Part shown: piece after piece, positions 9,497 through 18,675 of the stretch
How the letters are laid out: each line of letters opens with the position of its first letter
Position numbering within the stretch: position 1 is the first letter of the stretch
Position numbers and translations under genes: made by a program
Notes under the pieces: model-generated
Databases searched by the model: none
What the model was told of the DNA's origin: nothing
What the model saw: only the letters and a program-made list of their open reading frames with translations
DNA from: Pararhizobium gei
GTDB lineage: Bacteria > Pseudomonadota > Alphaproteobacteria > Rhizobiales > Rhizobiaceae
Assembly: GCF_029223885.1 (NCBI RefSeq)
Contig: NZ_CP119409.1
Location: 1,638,001-1,702,000 of the forward strand
Direction of reading: 5' to 3'
DNA: 64,000 nt

Positions 9497-10777
9497 TCAG
9501 GGCAGCTTGACCGGAGCCGTGTCGTCCTCGATCCTGTCATCCGGCCGTATTGCCTGGTTCATCGCATTGACTGCTTCCGTTCCCGGCGTGGGCACGGTGT
9601 TCGCCTGGAAATCGCTTTTCCCGATCAGGCCATCCTCATGGCTGCGCCGTCCGATGCGCCAGGCGGCATAGGCTCCATAGAGCGCGAAATAGACCGCGAG
9701 AACGGCAAACAGGGATGGCGGACCAAAGTGATCCATGACAGGCCCGACCATCAGCGGGCCGGAGATCGTGCCGACACCGTAGGTGATCATCATGCCGGAG
9801 GAGACCTCGACATACTCGGTCGGCTCCGCAAGATCATTGGCGTGGGCCACGTTCAAGGCATAAATCGGAAACAGCACAGAGCCGACGCAGGCAGCCAGGA
9901 CATAGAGGACAAGCGGGTCCGCGCCGACGAACGCAACCATGGCAAGGCAGGAGATCACGCCGATTATGCCGCATGCGACCATGACGATGCGGCGGTCCAT
10001 CCTGTCGGATGCGCGGCCGATCGGGATCTGGGAAATGGCGCTGCCGGTCAGCAAAGCTGCAAGCAGGGTTGCCCCTTCGGCGGTGGAAAGGCCGATCTTC
10101 TGCGTGAAGACACCGCCGAGATTGAGCCAGGCGCCGGCCATTGCGCCCGCGAGAAACGCGCCGACCACGGCGACCGGGGAGCGGCGAAACAGGCTTTTGA
10201 CATTGAACACGGCCTGCGCCGGCGGCGCCGGCATGGCCGAGGAGGACAGCGCCGTCGGCAGAAGAGCGAGCGAGAAGACGACCCCGCAGAGAATGAACAG
10301 CGAGGTATTGGTCGGGTCGCCCAAGGGCACGAGATACTGACCTCCGATGGTGCCCACCATCGTGGTGATGAGGTAGATGGAAAACAGCATGCCGCGATTT
10401 TCGTTGGTGACGCGCTCGTTCAGCCAGCTTTCGATGACGAGGTAGCTTCCGGAAATCGCAAAGCCGGAAATGGCGCGAAAGAAGATCCAGGCCCGCCAGT
10501 CGACGACGAGGCCGCACAGAAGAATGGCGATGCTGAGCAGCGTAATCAACGCCGCGAAAACCCTGACATGTCCGACACGGGCAACGAATTTCGGCGTGAC
10601 GATACAGGAGATGGTGAAACCGATCGTATAGCCCGTCGCGATCAGCGAGAAGGTCATCGTCGACCAGCCCTCGGCAACGGAGCGAACCGGCAGGACATAA
10701 CTCGCCAGCCCGAAGCCGACCATCATCAGCAGCGTCGAGAGAATCAGACTGAACACGGATTTGAAGCTGGCCAGCAT
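9497..10777 (-). CDS. MFS transporter (YcaD-like)
   Basis: A major facilitator superfamily permease, 426 aa, with twelve predicted membrane helices. The loop between helices 2 and 3 (TPKFVARVGHVRVF) and the matching second-half loop (GRASDRMDRRIVM) carry MFS motif-A-like residues. The pattern resembles YcaD/UMF2-type uptake or efflux carriers; no substrate can be assigned. A hydrophilic C-terminal tail of about 45 aa follows helix 12. A 43-nt stem-loop sits in its leader, ending 16 nt before the ATG and just before a gggag Shine-Dalgarno. Confidence 0.85.
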   Translation of the reverse strand: MLASFKSVFSLILSTLLMMVGFGLASYVLPVRSVAEGWSTMTFSLIATGYTIGFTISCIVTPKFVARVGHVRVFAALITLLSIAILLCGLVVDWRAWIFFRAISGFAISGSYLVIESWLNERVTNENRGMLFSIYLITTMVGTIGGQYLVPLGDPTNTSLFILCGVVFSLALLPTALSSSAMPAPPAQAVFNVKSLFRRSPVAVVGAFLAGAMAGAWLNLGGVFTQKIGLSTAEGATLLAALLTGSAISQIPIGRASDRMDRRIVMVACGIIGVISCLAMVAFVGADPLVLYVLAACVGSVLFPIYALNVAHANDLAEPTEYVEVSSGMMITYGVGTISGPLMVGPVMDHFGPPSLFAVLAVYFALYGAYAAWRIGRRSHEDGLIGKSDFQANTVPTPGTEAVNAMNQAIRPDDRIEDDTAPVKLP

Positions 10778-10793: not shown

Positions 10794-10836
10794 CGTCAGC
10801 CTCGCTGCCCGATCGGATCGGGTGGCGAGGCTGACG
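10794..10836 (-). repeat. 21-bp stem-loop in the leader of the MFS gene
   Basis: Twelve perfect pairs (10794-10805 with 10825-10836), two G-U-capable positions, then seven more perfect pairs (10808-10814 with 10816-10822). It ends immediately before the MFS ribosome-binding site. It could be a palindromic repeat element, an attenuator or the terminator of the small genes upstream. Confidence 0.75.
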
Positions 10837-12454: not shown

Positions 12455-13753
12455 TCAAGCGGCCATCGCCGTCCAGCGTTCGATGTCGTCGCGTTCGCCG
12501 ATCAGCGCCAGGCCGTGGGCGATCGACAGCAGTTCGCCGCCGCTCTCGATGCGGTGCGCGTCGAAACGGCTTTCGAACAGGCGGCGAATGGCGGGAACGA
12601 AGGACGTGCCGCCTGTCAGAAACACCTTGTCGATGCCGGCGGCGGGCGTATTGGTCACCGTCAGCACCTCGTCCAGCGCCTGTTCGATGCGGGCAAGATC
12701 CGGCGCGATCCAGCTTTCGAAATCGCTGCGGCGCACCGTCTGGCGGCTTTTTTCGCCGAGCGGCGCGAAATGAAACTCGGTTTCTTCCTCCAGCGACAGC
12801 CGCATCTTGGTTGCCGATATCGCCTGATAGAGCGGGTATCCCTCGTCGTGATCGACAAGATCGACGAAGGCTTCGAGCTTCTCCGGCTCGACGGCAGAGC
12901 GCACCAACTGCTTGAGGTCGGCAAAATCCTTCAGCGTCTTGAAGATCGACAGCTGGTTCCAGCGGCCGAAATTGGCGTAGTAGCTGGAGGGCACGTCGAG
13001 GAGCTTGTCGAAGCTTCTGAACTGGCTGCCCTTGCCGATGAGCGGCGACACCACCGTGTCGATAATGCGGAAATCGAAATGGTCGCCGGCGACGCCGACG
13101 CCGGAATGTCCGACAGGCACGGCTGTCAGCTTGCCCGCATGGCTTTCGAAGCGGATGATCGAATAGTCCGTCGTGCCGCCGCCGAAATCGGCGACCAGCA
13201 CGGTCGCATCCGTCTTGAGCTGCTGGGCAAAGAAGAAGGCGGCCGCGACGGGCTCGTAGACATAGTGGACCTCGGGAAAGCCGAAGGAGGACAGGGCCTT
13301 GCCGTAGCGCTCCAACGCCAGCGCCTCGTCGGGATTGCTGCCGGCGAACTGCACGGGACGGCCAACGACGATGCGGCCGAACTCCTGCTTCCAGTCCTCG
13401 CCGGCATAGTCGGCGATGCGGGTGAGGAAGGCGCGCATCAGATCCTCGAACGTGTTGCGCCGGGCAAAGATCAGCGTTCCCTGAAACAGCGGGCTTGCCG
13501 CGAAGGTCTTGATCGACTGCAGGAAGCGGGCGTCGCCGGGATTATCGATGAATTCCCGGATCGCAGCCTGGCCGGCCTCGATCTTCACGGCAGCCGCGCC
13601 CATTTGCGGATGTTTCATGAAGGACAGCGCGGTGCGCATCGAATCGGTCGTGCCGGCGGAACTGGTAAAGCTCAGCGATTGCGTCATGTCGCCCGTCGAG
13701 GCGGCGAGCACGGAATTGGTCGTGCCGAAATCGAAGCCGAGTGCCTTGGCCAT
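12455..13753 (-). CDS. Hsp70-family chaperone-like ATPase (YegD-like)
   Basis: 432 aa, containing essentially only the actin/Hsp70 nucleotide-binding fold. The phosphate-1 loop GFDFGTTNS is at residues 5-13; a phosphate-2 loop VADFGGGTTDY is central; the adenosine motif FLTGGTSFVPAI is near the C-terminus. The substrate-binding domain of DnaK is missing, as in E. coli YegD. The true start is the ATG at 13753 (MAKALGFDFG); the frame is open further upstream to 13912 without conservation. Its client is unknown. Confidence 0.88.
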   Translation of the reverse strand: MAKALGFDFGTTNSVLAASTGDMTQSLSFTSSAGTTDSMRTALSFMKHPQMGAAAVKIEAGQAAIREFIDNPGDARFLQSIKTFAASPLFQGTLIFARRNTFEDLMRAFLTRIADYAGEDWKQEFGRIVVGRPVQFAGSNPDEALALERYGKALSSFGFPEVHYVYEPVAAAFFFAQQLKTDATVLVADFGGGTTDYSIIRFESHAGKLTAVPVGHSGVGVAGDHFDFRIIDTVVSPLIGKGSQFRSFDKLLDVPSSYYANFGRWNQLSIFKTLKDFADLKQLVRSAVEPEKLEAFVDLVDHDEGYPLYQAISATKMRLSLEEETEFHFAPLGEKSRQTVRRSDFESWIAPDLARIEQALDEVLTVTNTPAAGIDKVFLTGGTSFVPAIRRLFESRFDAHRIESGGELLSIAHGLALIGERDDIERWTAMAA

Positions 13754-14012
13754 GAAAGTCTCCGTCTTGGGTGTCCACCGGCAGGGCGGCGGATATCGTC
13801 TCGCCAGCGCGCACGCAGCCTCGGAATGCCGTGCGGCAGCCGGAATGCGGGGATAGCGGAGAGCCTGGTGCGTTGGAGGGCGCCTCTTCGCATGGGGCGG
13901 GGGCCAAAGCAAGGCGGGATGGAACTAGCGTCTCAGCTAATTTTTTTTGATGGCGACCCATCGCGCAACACCGGCCTTCCCTATATCTTTACGAGAAAGC
14001 ATTGGAGGCGCA

Positions 14013-14231
14013 ATGACGGTCAAGGAACAAGTCAGCAAGCTGATTAAGTCGAAATCTCCCGACGCAACGTGCGATGACTGCATCGCAGATGCCCTGAAGC
14101 TCTCCGTGCGCCAACATGCCAACCACAAGACCATTGAGCTTGGTAACGCCTTTGGCTTTTACCGAAAAACTGGCATCTGCTCGATGTGCAAGAATACCAA
14201 AAAGGTTATTTGGTACATCAATCGGATCTAA
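14013..14231 (+). CDS. Small CxxC/CxxC protein, 72 aa, unknown
   Basis: Starts MTVKEQVSKLIKSK with a good Shine-Dalgarno (ggagg, 14009 region). Two cysteine pairs, CDDC near residue 20 and CSMC near residue 57, suggest one zinc-ribbon-like site. Between them lies a basic helical segment (ADALKLSVRQHANHKT) with an HTH-like look. Such proteins are often DNA-binding and lie in mobile or defence regions; no family is certain. It is the first gene of the lower-GC island and is divergent from the Hsp70-like gene. Confidence 0.65.
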   Translation: MTVKEQVSKLIKSKSPDATCDDCIADALKLSVRQHANHKTIELGNAFGFYRKTGICSMCKNTKKVIWYINRI

Positions 14232-14481
14232 AGCACACTGCCGATGTGATCGACAACATCGTGAGTTTTGGGCAGGCAATCCAGATGACAAACGATTGAC
14301 GACGGGTGGAGATCCGACTGCCAAACGAGCTGAAAAATGCGGCCGAGAGGATGAAGCCCGAACGGCGCGTGAAGTTGCGCAGAAACCAGCACAAAAACAC
14401 TGCAGCGCCAAGGATAGTCTTGATGTTGTTAATTTTCTATGCCACATATGTGGCTCAGAAAATTAACAAGGCTGTTCCGCG
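14232..14481 (+). other. Intergenic region upstream of the 214-aa gene
   Basis: 250 bp without a supported gene. Its right end contains the 40-bp palindrome at 14428-14467; a TTGATG hexamer at 14420-14425 could be a -35 element overlapping it. Confidence 0.4.
14428..14467. promoter_or_regulatory. 40-bp near-perfect palindrome, probable XRE operator
   Basis: Outer arms gttaattttct / agaaaattaac (11 bp, perfect) enclose a perfect 14-bp palindrome gccacatatgtggc; only 2 nt on each side of the centre are unpaired. The palindrome ends 14 nt before the ATG of the 214-aa gene. An AT-rich perfect dyad at this position is typical of an autoregulatory operator; the XRE-ImmA protein encoded downstream is the obvious candidate to bind it (inference). 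Confidence 0.7.
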
Positions 14482-15126
14482 ATGCTTCCTGAATTTGTCG
14501 AGACCACTATCATCGATGGCCCAGATGAAGTTCGGGCGTTCTTGCAAACAATGAATTTGTCGGTGAACGGCGTTTTGGCGATTCGTGACATAGCTTATGT
14601 TCATCTCACTGACACGAGTCCACTCATGGCGCGAAATGCAGCGGGCACTCTGGCTTATCATTATGGCCTCGGAGAGATGCGTGTTCAGTTTCTCGGAAAG
14701 CACTGGGAAATATGTGTGGAAGGTGGAATTGAAGCCATTGAAGACCCATCGCGGAACGTGCGGCTCGTGTATCAAAATGTTGACGTTTCTTGCTCGCGGG
14801 TGACGGCGCCTAAGCCGCGTACCGATAAAGGCGCTGGAACTGAACGTGAGTGCGAATCCAGTTTGTTTGAGTATTACGGCGTCTCGGCACCTCAAAAAGT
14901 GAGGGCCGTCCATGGCGGGAAGTCGGTGTATTTTGTAATGGTGGACGATCGAGGCGCGGTGGAGATTTCCCGGCCCGTCATTGAGGATGGGAAGTTTACG
15001 AAGTTCATCACTCGCGTTTTTGTTTCTGATGGTTCGGACATTACCAAAGAAAAAGACTTGCCAGTTGTCAGTTTGAGCGAACCTGTTGACGATTTTGAAG
15101 TCACCGTACGCAGACGCAGCAAATAG
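14482..15126 (+). CDS. Unknown 214-aa protein coupled to XRE-ImmA
   Basis: I do not recognise the family. There is no signal peptide or membrane segment. The sequence alternates beta-prone blocks (MRVQFLGKHWEICVEGG, VRLVYQNVDVSC, KSVYFVMVDDRGAVEI, KFITRVFVSDG) with a polar linker around residues 110-130. Four cysteines are scattered and form no motif. It is followed after 2 nt by the XRE-ImmA gene, so the two are almost certainly co-translated, and it is preceded by a 40-bp palindrome. By analogy with ImmA/IrrE systems it may be a proteolytic substrate, effector or toxin of that partner; this is inference. Confidence 0.75.
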   Translation: MLPEFVETTIIDGPDEVRAFLQTMNLSVNGVLAIRDIAYVHLTDTSPLMARNAAGTLAYHYGLGEMRVQFLGKHWEICVEGGIEAIEDPSRNVRLVYQNVDVSCSRVTAPKPRTDKGAGTERECESSLFEYYGVSAPQKVRAVHGGKSVYFVMVDDRGAVEISRPVIEDGKFTKFITRVFVSDGSDITKEKDLPVVSLSEPVDDFEVTVRRRSK

Positions 15127-15128
15127 CC

Positions 15129-16211
15129 ATGTTTAGCGGGAAACGACTAACCCTCGCTAGAGATAGACGGGGGCTTACAGGGATTCAACTTTCGGAACTC
15201 AGCGGCATAACCGCTGTAACAATATCGCGACTGGAAAGTGGACAGACAAAGCAGCCCGACGACGAAACGATCGCCCGCCTTGCCGGCGCTCTTCGCTATC
15301 CCGGTGATTTCTTCTTTAAGGCGGCGCCGGAAGAGCTTGACGATAACACTGTTAGCTTCCGAAGCCTTAAGAAGATGAGCGCAAAACAGAAGAATGCGGC
15401 ACTTGGCGCTGGGAGCTTGGGTCTTGAACTTTATGACTTAGTTGAAAACGACTACCATCTGCCAGAGCCTAACGTGCCAGAGTTCAGCGGTGGCCATGAG
15501 CCCTATGTTGCGGCTAGACTTGTTAGGCAGCATTGGGGGCTTGGAGACCGCCCTATTGGCAACGTCCTCCGGCTTCTTGAATCAAGGGGTGTCCGTGTGC
15601 TCTCTTTGGAAGAAAGTAATAAAAATGTAGATGCTTTTTCTTTCTGGAGAAAAGGAAAACCGTTTGTCTTCCTTAACACGTTCAAGACCGCTGAACATAG
15701 TATTTTTGACTGCGGACATGAGCTAGGGCATCTGTGTTTGCATAAGCATGCAGGCCCAAGATCTATAAAATCTGCTGAGATGGAAGCAAATATGTTTGCT
15801 TCATCATTTTTAATGCCAGAACACGACGTAAAGGCGGCGATACCTCATCGTCTGATCAGCGTTAAGACGATCATTGCATCAAAGATTAGGTGGAAAGTCT
15901 CAGCTATGGCTCTTACTGTTCGGCTTCACCAGCTTGAGATGCTTTCGGATTGGCAATATCGGTCGATGTGCATTGATCTTGGTAAGCTCGGGTATCGTTC
16001 TTCTGAAAAGATTGGCGTCGTACGAGAGAAATCCGTCCTTTGGCAAAAAATTCTAGCTGATCTTTGGTCAAAGAAATTGACCAAGGAGGATCTGGGTAAG
16101 AAACTAGGCTTTCCATATGACGAAGTTGAGCGACTCATCTTCCAACTTGCAGGTGATGTGCCGGTCCCATCACCTCAAAAGGTTCAACTCAAAGAGGTGC
16201 CGAAGGCGTGA
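15129..16211 (+). CDS. XRE-family regulator fused to ImmA/IrrE (M78) metallopeptidase
   Basis: 360 aa. An N-terminal HTH_XRE domain (about 5-60; RRGLTGIQLSELSGI, TISRLESGQ) is followed by a COG2856-type zinc peptidase with HELGH at 197-201 and the third ligand Glu219 in EMEANMFASSFLMP. A C-terminal region (about 260-350) contains another helical, possibly DNA-binding, segment. Family members cleave partner repressors or act as antitoxin-like regulators (ImmA of ICEBs1, IrrE/PprI). It starts 2 nt after the unknown gene. Codon use is AT-richer than in neighbouring core genes, which suggests transfer. Confidence 0.9.
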   Translation: MFSGKRLTLARDRRGLTGIQLSELSGITAVTISRLESGQTKQPDDETIARLAGALRYPGDFFFKAAPEELDDNTVSFRSLKKMSAKQKNAALGAGSLGLELYDLVENDYHLPEPNVPEFSGGHEPYVAARLVRQHWGLGDRPIGNVLRLLESRGVRVLSLEESNKNVDAFSFWRKGKPFVFLNTFKTAEHSIFDCGHELGHLCLHKHAGPRSIKSAEMEANMFASSFLMPEHDVKAAIPHRLISVKTIIASKIRWKVSAMALTVRLHQLEMLSDWQYRSMCIDLGKLGYRSSEKIGVVREKSVLWQKILADLWSKKLTKEDLGKKLGFPYDEVERLIFQLAGDVPVPSPQKVQLKEVPKA

Positions 16212-16224
16212 GGGGCAATCCACT

Positions 16225-16332
16225 GCGCTGTGCATGTTTCGCTACCGCTACACCCCCGATGGCGAGCGGATCGACAATATCACCGACTGGGGCCTGAAGC
16301 AGTTTCAAAAGGCCTATGGCAAAGACGGGCGA
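16225..16332 (+). pseudogene. Remnant of a type ISP restriction-methylation/helicase gene
   Basis: In frame from about 16225 the DNA reads FRYRYTPDGERIDNITDWG followed by LKQFQKAYGKDG. This block is, from memory, the conserved region following the methyltransferase part of large Mrr-helicase-N6-methylase (type ISP) proteins. Nothing else of that roughly 1,500-residue family is present: the left side abuts the XRE-ImmA stop and the right side runs into a palindromic repeat. It is therefore a relic left by deletion. Confidence 0.6.
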
Positions 16333-16337
16333 GGGTC

Positions 16338-16450
16338 CGGGGCTGATCTCCCCCTTGTGGGGGAGATGTCACCTTTGGTGACAGAGCCTGTCCTCAGGAT
16401 TGCCGAAGACAAGACCCGTGGGGGCCACCCTCCCACAAGGAGAAAGGAAA
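16338..16450 (+). repeat. Rhizobial intergenic palindromic repeat
   Basis: Contains the perfect stem atctccccc-ttgt-gggggagat (16346-16367) and a second small stem gtcacc-ttt-ggtgac (16368-16382), followed by a degenerate gggtgg/ccaccc region. Sequences reading 'ctgatctcccccttgtgggggagatgtc' are a familiar dispersed intergenic element in Rhizobiales genomes (recalled, not searched). It marks the junction where the restriction gene was lost. Confidence 0.65.
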
Positions 16451-16472
16451 GCGCCCGGCGTTAGTTCGCGGC

Positions 16473-18309: not shown

Positions 18310-18675
18310 TCAGCGGTTGTAGCCGACGCCGAAGGAGGCAGCGATTTCGGCCAGCCGTTTGTCGCGGGTCCAAAGGCATGCCTCCGGCGTCAAAAGAGTC
18401 GATGCCAGTAAATGGACATCAATATATCCGACGCCTCGTCCGTAGAGTCGATGTTCACGAACCAGATAGAGAACATCGTCGTCCCGTGCCTTTGTTGCCA
18501 AAGGAAATTTCGAAAGACCGCGCATCGTGAAATCGTAACGCGGGATACTGCCCAACCCGATCTCTCCGATCACAAAAGGGTGCATCAGGACGCTGCTGCT
18601 CTCCAAAAGAGCCTGCAATTCTTCGACGGGCGCGCGAAGATGGTCGATCCAGACAGAGGCATCGACAAGTATCAT
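18310..18675 (-). CDS. vapC: PIN-domain toxin VapC
   Basis: 121-aa PIN ribonuclease. The acidic active site is visible: Asp5 in MILVDASVWIDHLR, Glu in VIGEIGLGS, Asp in GYIDVHLLAS and WTRDKRL near the end. Type II toxins of this kind usually cleave tRNA or rRNA. Its ATG shares one base with the vapB stop (TAATG), so translation is coupled. It ends only 6 bp from the ETF-QO stop. Confidence 0.92.
   Translation of the reverse strand: MILVDASVWIDHLRAPVEELQALLESSSVLMHPFVIGEIGLGSIPRYDFTMRGLSKFPLATKARDDDVLYLVREHRLYGRGVGYIDVHLLASTLLTPEACLWTRDKRLAEIAASFGVGYNR

What the first reader, a model, noticed from the sequence alone, without database searches (positions are those of the whole stretch)
14428..16211. 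Two-gene module: unknown 214-aa protein + XRE-ImmA protease behind a 40-bp palindrome
Seen: a 40-bp near-perfect dyad, then an unrecognised ORF, then after 2 nt an XRE domain fused to an intact HELGH metallopeptidase. Known: XRE/ImmA proteins regulate mobile elements by cleaving partner repressors, and COG2856 proteins are found in toxin-antitoxin-like pairs. Inference: this is an autoregulated effector/protease pair, possibly a toxin-antitoxin or phage-defence module in which the 214-aa protein is either effector or substrate.
Basis: partly seen in the sequence, partly recalled or inferred. Interest (0 to 1): 0.75.

Follow-up and report, generated by a model that had tools for sequence, protein, structure and literature searches.

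The report
RosmerTA toxin–antitoxin pair with promoter operator
This is a small bacterial toxin–antitoxin gene pair of the known RosmerTA phage-defence type, with a long palindrome laid over its own promoter; relatives of the toxin share a short motif suggesting that they jam the ring (sliding clamp) that holds DNA polymerase on DNA.

Summary
In detail: a 44-bp dyad (14426-14469), a 214-aa ORF and, 2 nt later, an XRE-M78 (HELGH) protein. PADLOC models name them RmrT (E 4e-68) and RmrA (E 3.5e-160), a RosmerTA toxin-antitoxin/defence pair, so the kind is known. It sits in a 2.55-kb islet; 16 of 18 same-genus genomes sampled show the site without it. RmrA follows RmrT in 23 of 23 loci read; RmrT precedes RmrA in 77 of 80 viral contigs picked by RmrA. 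The dyad recurs before rmrT with compensated changes, and in 33 of 61 sites a TTG lies 26-29 nt before its centre: a promoter operator. New, untested: divergent RosmerTA toxins carry, around residues 115-146, matches to the bacterial sliding-clamp-binding motif (QLSLF, QIDMF, QLKLDL). This fits RipA of S. pneumoniae, a RosmerTA toxin whose suppressors lie in the DnaN pocket that binds such motifs. Against: the window's copy reads ESSLF (Glu weakens known peptides); RmrA controls show clustered chance matches too; homology to RipA is unproven; no structure could be predicted. Verdict: new member of a known kind, with a testable clamp-poison hypothesis.

The parts
14420..14425 (+). putative -35 element (TTGATG), first T about 28 nt before the dyad centre
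   Evidence: read; TTG 26-29 nt before the dyad centre in 33 of 61 related sites; promoter role inferred
14426..14469 (.). operator: 44-bp dyad, inner box CCACAT/ATGTGG, outer box TTGTTAATTTT/AAAATTAACAA; putative -10 near its centre
   Evidence: conserved in place with compensated changes
14482..15126 (+). rmrT: predicted RosmerTA toxin, 214 aa
   Evidence: PADLOC PDLC03932 E 3.9e-68 and PDLC03935 E 2.1e-15; followed by rmrA in 23 of 23 loci read
14854..14868 (+). codons 125-129 of rmrT (ESSLF), aligned with the clamp-binding-motif-like pentapeptide of relatives
   Evidence: degenerate here (E in place of Q)
15129..16211 (+). rmrA: predicted antitoxin/repressor, XRE HTH fused to M78 (ImmA/IrrE) metallopeptidase, 360 aa
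   Evidence: PADLOC PDLC03946 E 3.5e-160; HTH_3 and Peptidase_M78; HExxH and E217 invariant in 19 of 19
13925..16472 (.). strain-specific islet that holds the pair and a 72-aa ORF
   Evidence: 16 of 18 same-genus genomes sampled have the two flanking genes adjacent, 28 to about 300 nt apart

Best explanation
A RosmerTA toxin-antitoxin module. RmrA (XRE-M78) is antitoxin and autorepressor: it binds the dyad that covers the rmrT promoter and, as a protein, keeps RmrT inactive. When an infecting phage or another stress removes RmrA or its repression, RmrT is made or freed and stops growth before the phage spreads. Proposed target of RmrT: the replication sliding clamp (DnaN), whose protein-binding pocket it would occupy with a clamp-binding-motif-like loop around residues 125-129. 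Shown here: family membership, two-way gene association, recurrent promoter-overlapping dyad, motif pattern in relatives. Inferred: RmrA as the DNA binder, its antitoxin action, the trigger, the clamp as target. My odds: RosmerTA-type toxin-antitoxin pair 0.93; autorepression through the dyad 0.8; defence as main selected role 0.6; clamp as target of the wider toxin family 0.5, of this copy 0.4.
For: PADLOC RmrT and RmrA models. RmrA follows RmrT in 23 of 23 loci read; RmrT precedes RmrA in 77 of 80 viral contigs selected by RmrA alone. Dyad at the same place in 41 of 54 viral loci (at most 1 of 100 shuffles as good) and 16 of 21 others (at most 1 of 200); score 10 or more in 36 of 54, against 3 of 54 inside rmrA; TTG 26-29 nt before the centre in 33 of 61 sites; paired offsets with changing bases, e.g. 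offset 20: 58 of 61 against 24.2 expected from the columns. Clamp: Q..[LM]F occurs 23 times in 80 non-redundant RmrT, all 23 at one aligned place (shuffled proteins: mean 2.2, maximum 6); other RosmerTA toxin clusters show it in the same stretch, 12 of 13 of one cluster with the Q. RipA, a RosmerTA toxin, has suppressors in the DnaN hydrophobic pocket and interacts with DnaN (PMC12795458: abstract, passages, sections 7 and 12). SocB shows that a toxin can act this way (PMC9690074, passages).
Against: Window motif is ESSLF; Glu for Gln in QLDLF 'greatly reduced the affinity' (PMC11139829, passages); 16 of 34 close relatives lack the Q. The published strict motif is present in only 18 of 80 RmrT (shuffled mean 4.6, maximum 11) and 15 of 55 other partners, against 10 of 50 RmrA controls; in RmrA controls such matches also cluster, 9 of 55 at residues 213-244. 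The [QN] pattern was framed after looking. The RipA-like partner in L182 has no such pentapeptide and reaches one other cluster only weakly (hhalign probability 66.6) and the window superfamily not at all (0.1). Another RosmerTA toxin, from phage Kita, depolarises membranes (PMC10440598, passages). 18 of 61 operator sites have neither promoter pattern. No fold could be predicted.
Confidence: 0.6

Rival explanations
1. RosmerTA pair as above, but RmrT is an enzyme (nuclease or nucleotide/protein modifier) and the L/M-F stretch is only structural.
For: Charged and polar residues are nearly invariant over very divergent members: E161 and R178 99%, R67 95%, K116 88%, D101 84% of 80. The motif Q is variable.
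Against: No match to any enzyme family in Pfam, NCBIfam, PHROGs or the PDB by sequence profile, which does not exclude a remote fold. Motif letters recur in pentapeptide and hexapeptide forms across families.
Confidence: 0.25
2. RosmerTA pair whose toxin acts on membranes, as the phage Kita toxin does.
For: Kita RmrT depolarises the membrane of E. coli (PMC10440598, passages).
Against: No hydrophobic segment: Kyte-Doolittle maximum 0.94 over 19 residues in the window protein; 2 of 80 relatives exceed 1.6.
Confidence: 0.05
3. A mobile-element regulatory pair of the ImmA/ImmR kind: the protease cleaves a partner repressor and the 214-aa protein is that substrate.
For: RmrA has an M78 domain; XRE/COG2856 pairs work that way in ICEBs1 (recalled; also in passages of PMC2701414).
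Against: The 214-aa protein has no HTH by Pfam; the HTH is fused to the protease; the family is filed as toxin in PADLOC.
Confidence: 0.06
4. The dyad is an RNA hairpin (attenuator or translation control) rather than a DNA operator.
For: Compensated changes and perfect arms would also fit RNA pairing.
Against: In 33 of 61 sites the spacing of TTG to the centre puts the -10 at the centre, so the transcript would start inside the right arm; in 10 others a TTG and a TATAA-like box lie inside the dyad. Start sites are not mapped.
Confidence: 0.15

Closest known systems
RosmerTA (RmrT/RmrA; PADLOC, DefenseFinder)
   Same: Both genes match its models; toxin gene before an XRE-M78 antitoxin gene; occurs on chromosomes, plasmids and in prophage-like contigs.
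   Different: This toxin subfamily (PDLC03932/03935) has, in the papers I searched, no assigned target; its promoter-overlapping dyad and the motif are not described in the passages seen.
RipAB (Spr1630/Spr1629), S. pneumoniae
   Same: Toxin followed by XRE-ImmA antitoxin; filed by its authors as Rosmer; toxin linked to DnaN (PMC12795458).
   Different: Window RmrA scores 118 bits against the spr1629 model's cut-off of 335; toxin homology not shown: the RipA-like partner in L182 gives hhalign probability 0.1 with the window superfamily.
SocAB, Caulobacter
   Same: Toxin SocB binds the sliding clamp through a clamp-binding motif (PMC9690074, passages).
   Different: Its antitoxin is not an XRE-M78 protein (recalled); no sequence comparison was made here.
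ImmA/ImmR of ICEBs1
   Same: M78 metalloprotease with XRE domain in one regulatory pair.
   Different: There the two are separate proteins; here they are fused and paired with a non-HTH protein.

Membership tests
RosmerTA | toxin gene matches an RmrT model | tested here: met
   PDLC03932 E 3.9e-68
RosmerTA | antitoxin with XRE HTH and ImmA/M78 domain matching an RmrA model | tested here: met
   PDLC03946 E 3.5e-160; HTH_3 and Peptidase_M78
RosmerTA | two genes adjacent on one strand and constantly associated | tested here: met
   2 nt apart; 23 of 23 and 77 of 80 loci
RosmerTA | toxicity of RmrT neutralised by RmrA | not testable with these tools
   needs expression assays
RosmerTA | protection against phage | not testable with these tools
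   needs phage challenge
autoregulated type II toxin-antitoxin operon | operator overlapping the promoter of the operon | tested here: inconclusive
   comparative anatomy fits; binding and start site not measured; 18 of 61 sites show neither promoter pattern
clamp-binding toxin (works like RipA or SocB) | canonical motif Q-aliphatic-x-[L/M]-[F/L] (or with one more residue before the last) in the toxin family | tested here: inconclusive
   strict form in 18 of 80 relatives, 15 of these at residues 114-145; RmrA control shows clustered matches too
clamp-binding toxin (works like RipA or SocB) | canonical motif in the window protein itself | tested here: not met
   ESSLF at 125-129
RipAB (spr1629 equivalog) | antitoxin above the NF052239 cut-off | tested here: not met
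   118.4 bits against 335
ImmA/ImmR | separate XRE repressor as substrate | tested here: not met
   partner has no HTH by Pfam; HTH fused to protease; no other XRE gene seen by eye among the islet's ORFs

The most novel reading that the evidence does not exclude
RosmerTA toxins, though divergent enough to look unrelated, form one superfamily of sliding-clamp poisons. Each exposes a clamp-binding-motif loop that takes over the DnaN pocket used by polymerases and repair factors, and a single XRE-M78 antitoxin both represses the operon through a nested four-box operator and disarms the toxin. RipA would be the first tested case of a general mechanism.
Probability: 0.4. Interest if true: 0.7.

Novelty: new member of a known kind. 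Interest (0 to 1): 0.5.

Why it matters
RosmerTA is recorded in many defence surveys, yet in the papers I saw only two of its toxins have an assigned action (membrane for phage Kita, DnaN for RipA). If the motif pattern is functional, a large group of unnamed phage- and plasmid-borne toxins would share one target, the replication clamp, at a pocket also studied for antibacterial drugs. The hypothesis is cheap to test, and the recurrent operator gives a ready handle on how the modules are kept silent.

Tried and rejected
PDB sequence-profile searches with three alignments gave nothing credible (best E 1.2-1.4). RmrT had no match in 50,697 phage records (tblastn) and none confirmed in viral contigs by its own patterns; the RmrA route found them. 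Genome contigs gave only 2 loci.

One weak RmrT hit, G252 (E 5.5e-4, five stops inside), was dropped from the locus counts: no RmrT or RmrA was found in the 9 kb read around it. Four of 11 plasmid hits (H4, H5, H6, H9) were not fetched. Start codons in L057, L064 and L047 were reset downstream of the dyad by eye. L108's dyad is a CAGCTG repeat array and was left in the 61 sites.

Rejected: a transmembrane toxin (hydropathy); a shared upstream gene as a third component (the 72-aa ORF is not beside RmrTA in the other loci).

Results against my reading: presence of the strict motif in other clusters (15 of 55) is not far above RmrA controls (10 of 50), and those controls also cluster; the window superfamily does not reach clusters 1 and 2, or the RipA-like protein, by hhalign (probability 0.1 each).

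Full report
Observation. The dyad, the 214-aa ORF and the XRE-HELGH ORF are present as described. The arms are 14426-14447 and 14448-14469, 91% complementary; no shuffle of 1500 matches the score and no other dyad in the 64 kb scores as high. The ORFs are 14482-15126 and 15129-16211.

Identity. Pfam and NCBIfam give nothing for the 214-aa protein, and PHROGs one match at E 0.26. PADLOC gives RmrT PDLC03932 (E 3.9e-68) for it and RmrA PDLC03946 (E 3.5e-160) for its neighbour: a RosmerTA pair. RosmerTA is known as a toxin-antitoxin/defence type: a Gordonia phage Kita pair was shown to be toxic and to protect against some coliphages (PMC10440598, passages), an S. thermophilus pair gave narrow protection (PMC12322248, passages), and RipAB of S. 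pneumoniae is a Rosmer pair whose toxin acts on DnaN (PMC12795458, abstract, passages and sections 7 and 12). The founding paper (Millman 2022) was not seen; it is cited in the last. The finding is therefore a new member of a known kind.

Association. Whole-genome searches with the RmrT model hit 7 of 289 genomes of the class, 7 of 398 of the phylum and 3 of 26 of the genus, and an alignment search hit 5 of 297 of the order; these samples overlap. One hit, G252, is a weak stretch with stops and no RmrA near and was set aside. In the class search the seven strongest RmrA hits (over 400 bits) comprise six with RmrT directly before them and one at a contig end. Reverse test: 80 viral contigs chosen by RmrA alone (the best 80 of 415) have an RmrT relative directly upstream in 77: 75, and L135 and the contig-cut L101. 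Of the other three, L175 starts at a contig end and L154/L155 have no RmrT. More distant RmrA lead to other partners: 72 of 80 loci of a second scan have a partner of at least 150 aa directly upstream.

Islet. Of 18 same-genus genomes sampled, 16 have the left gene (window 12627-13924) and the right gene (window 16473 onwards) adjacent, 28 to about 300 nt apart; two were uninformative in the loci fetched. The names Hsp70-like and ETF-QO for these neighbours are my reading of the sequence, not a family search. Eleven plasmid records carry relatives, 8 of them typed conjugative.

Operator. Near the rmrT start, 41 of 54 viral loci have a dyad matched by at most 1 of 100 shuffles, and 16 of the 21 other loci one matched by at most 1 of 200; scores of 10 or more occur in 36 of 54 there, against 3 of 54 in an equal stretch inside rmrA. 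Over 61 sites (those scoring 7.5 or more of 72 scanned, so chosen for symmetry) offsets 2-7 (offset 7 least) and 13-23 from the centre stay paired although the bases change, e.g. offset 17: 51 of 61 against 17.3 expected from the columns, offset 20: 58 against 24.2; offset 8 is not paired (11 of 61). This is a nested, four-box palindrome, core CCNCA-N2-TGNGG, outer boxes near TTNATTTT. A TTG lies 26-29 nt before the centre in 33 of 61; in 10 others a TTG and a TATAA-like box lie within the dyad; 18 have neither. The promoter reading, and RmrA as the binder, are inference.

RmrA. The HExxH residues and E217 are invariant in 19 of 19, so an active protease is likely. What it cuts is unknown.

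RmrT. No transmembrane segment, no known fold by sequence. Over 80 non-redundant members E161 and R178 are 99% conserved. At window position 129 F stands in 69 of 80, preceded by L or M in 56 of those 69 and, four before, by Q in 25. All 23 occurrences of Q..[LM]F in these proteins lie there (shuffled mean 2.2, maximum 6). Some members instead show hexapeptides such as QLKLDL, QIDLDF or QLSLPF. Published motif definitions are Q-aliphatic-x-[L/M]-[F/L] and the same with one residue before the last (PMC11139829, passages). Three other RosmerTA toxin clusters, found through divergent RmrA, show similar pentapeptides at 124-136 (QISLF, QFDLF, QMNLF, QLSLF); in one cluster 12 of 13 have the Q. The pattern [QN].[DSNT][LMIF]F falls 24 times at 115-146 and never elsewhere in the 80, and 17 times against 2 in the 55 others; it was framed after inspection. 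hhalign links the window superfamily to cluster 0 (probability 70.7, E 3.8e-5, motif stretches aligned), cluster 0 to cluster 1 (89.0) and to cluster 2 (93.9), but not the window superfamily to clusters 1 or 2. Five of six phage/plasmid partners scanned match other PADLOC RmrT models.

Limits. The window protein itself reads ESSLF, and among 34 close relatives the first letter is Q in 18 and E in 10; Glu there greatly weakens the consensus peptide. RmrA controls contain strict matches in 10 of 50, and 9 of 55 cluster at residues 213-244, so clustering alone is no proof. The toxin next to a true spr1629-family antitoxin (L182, 429 bits against 335) has no such pentapeptide and is only weakly linked to cluster 0 (66.6). 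Searches of the paper library for Rosmer with sliding clamp, and for toxin-antitoxin with clamp-binding motif, listed no paper that I recognised as describing this motif in RosmerTA toxins; I saw listings only, apart from the papers named here, and subscription journals are mostly not held.

Noticed in passing
window 14013-14228 (+): 72-aa cysteine-containing ORF in the same islet; ClpX-type C4 zinc finger below cut-off (16.8 bits, cut-off 27). Relatives in 5 of 150 genomes of the order, the window's own included, and not beside RmrTA in the other loci.
   Followed up: partly
window 10794-10835: Second-best dyad of the window (21-nt arms, score 16.0), 17 nt upstream of the start of a minus-strand ORF (9497-10777) that looks like a transporter by eye.
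   Followed up: no
window 18310-18675 (-): PIN-domain (VapC-like) protein just above the Pfam cut-off (24.6 against 23.6), about 2 kb beyond the islet.
   Followed up: no
window 16346-16368: Short palindrome (ATCTCCCCCTTGTGGGGGAGATG) at the right end of the islet; 3 places in the genome with up to 2 mismatches, so a low-copy repeat.
   Followed up: partly
L061 3872-4452: On plasmid pTiB230/85 rmrT is frame-broken while rmrA is intact and carries the same protein accession as in R. tropici CIAT 899: loss of toxin with antitoxin kept.
   Followed up: partly
L154 and L155, upstream of position 2668: RmrA relatives in viral contigs without any RmrT upstream, possibly orphan antitoxins or a phage repressor.
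   Followed up: no
L057 5776-8627; L062 5927-6814: RosmerTA beside a type ISP restriction/modification gene on a Paracoccus plasmid and beside a dprA gene on an Agrobacterium plasmid.
   Followed up: no
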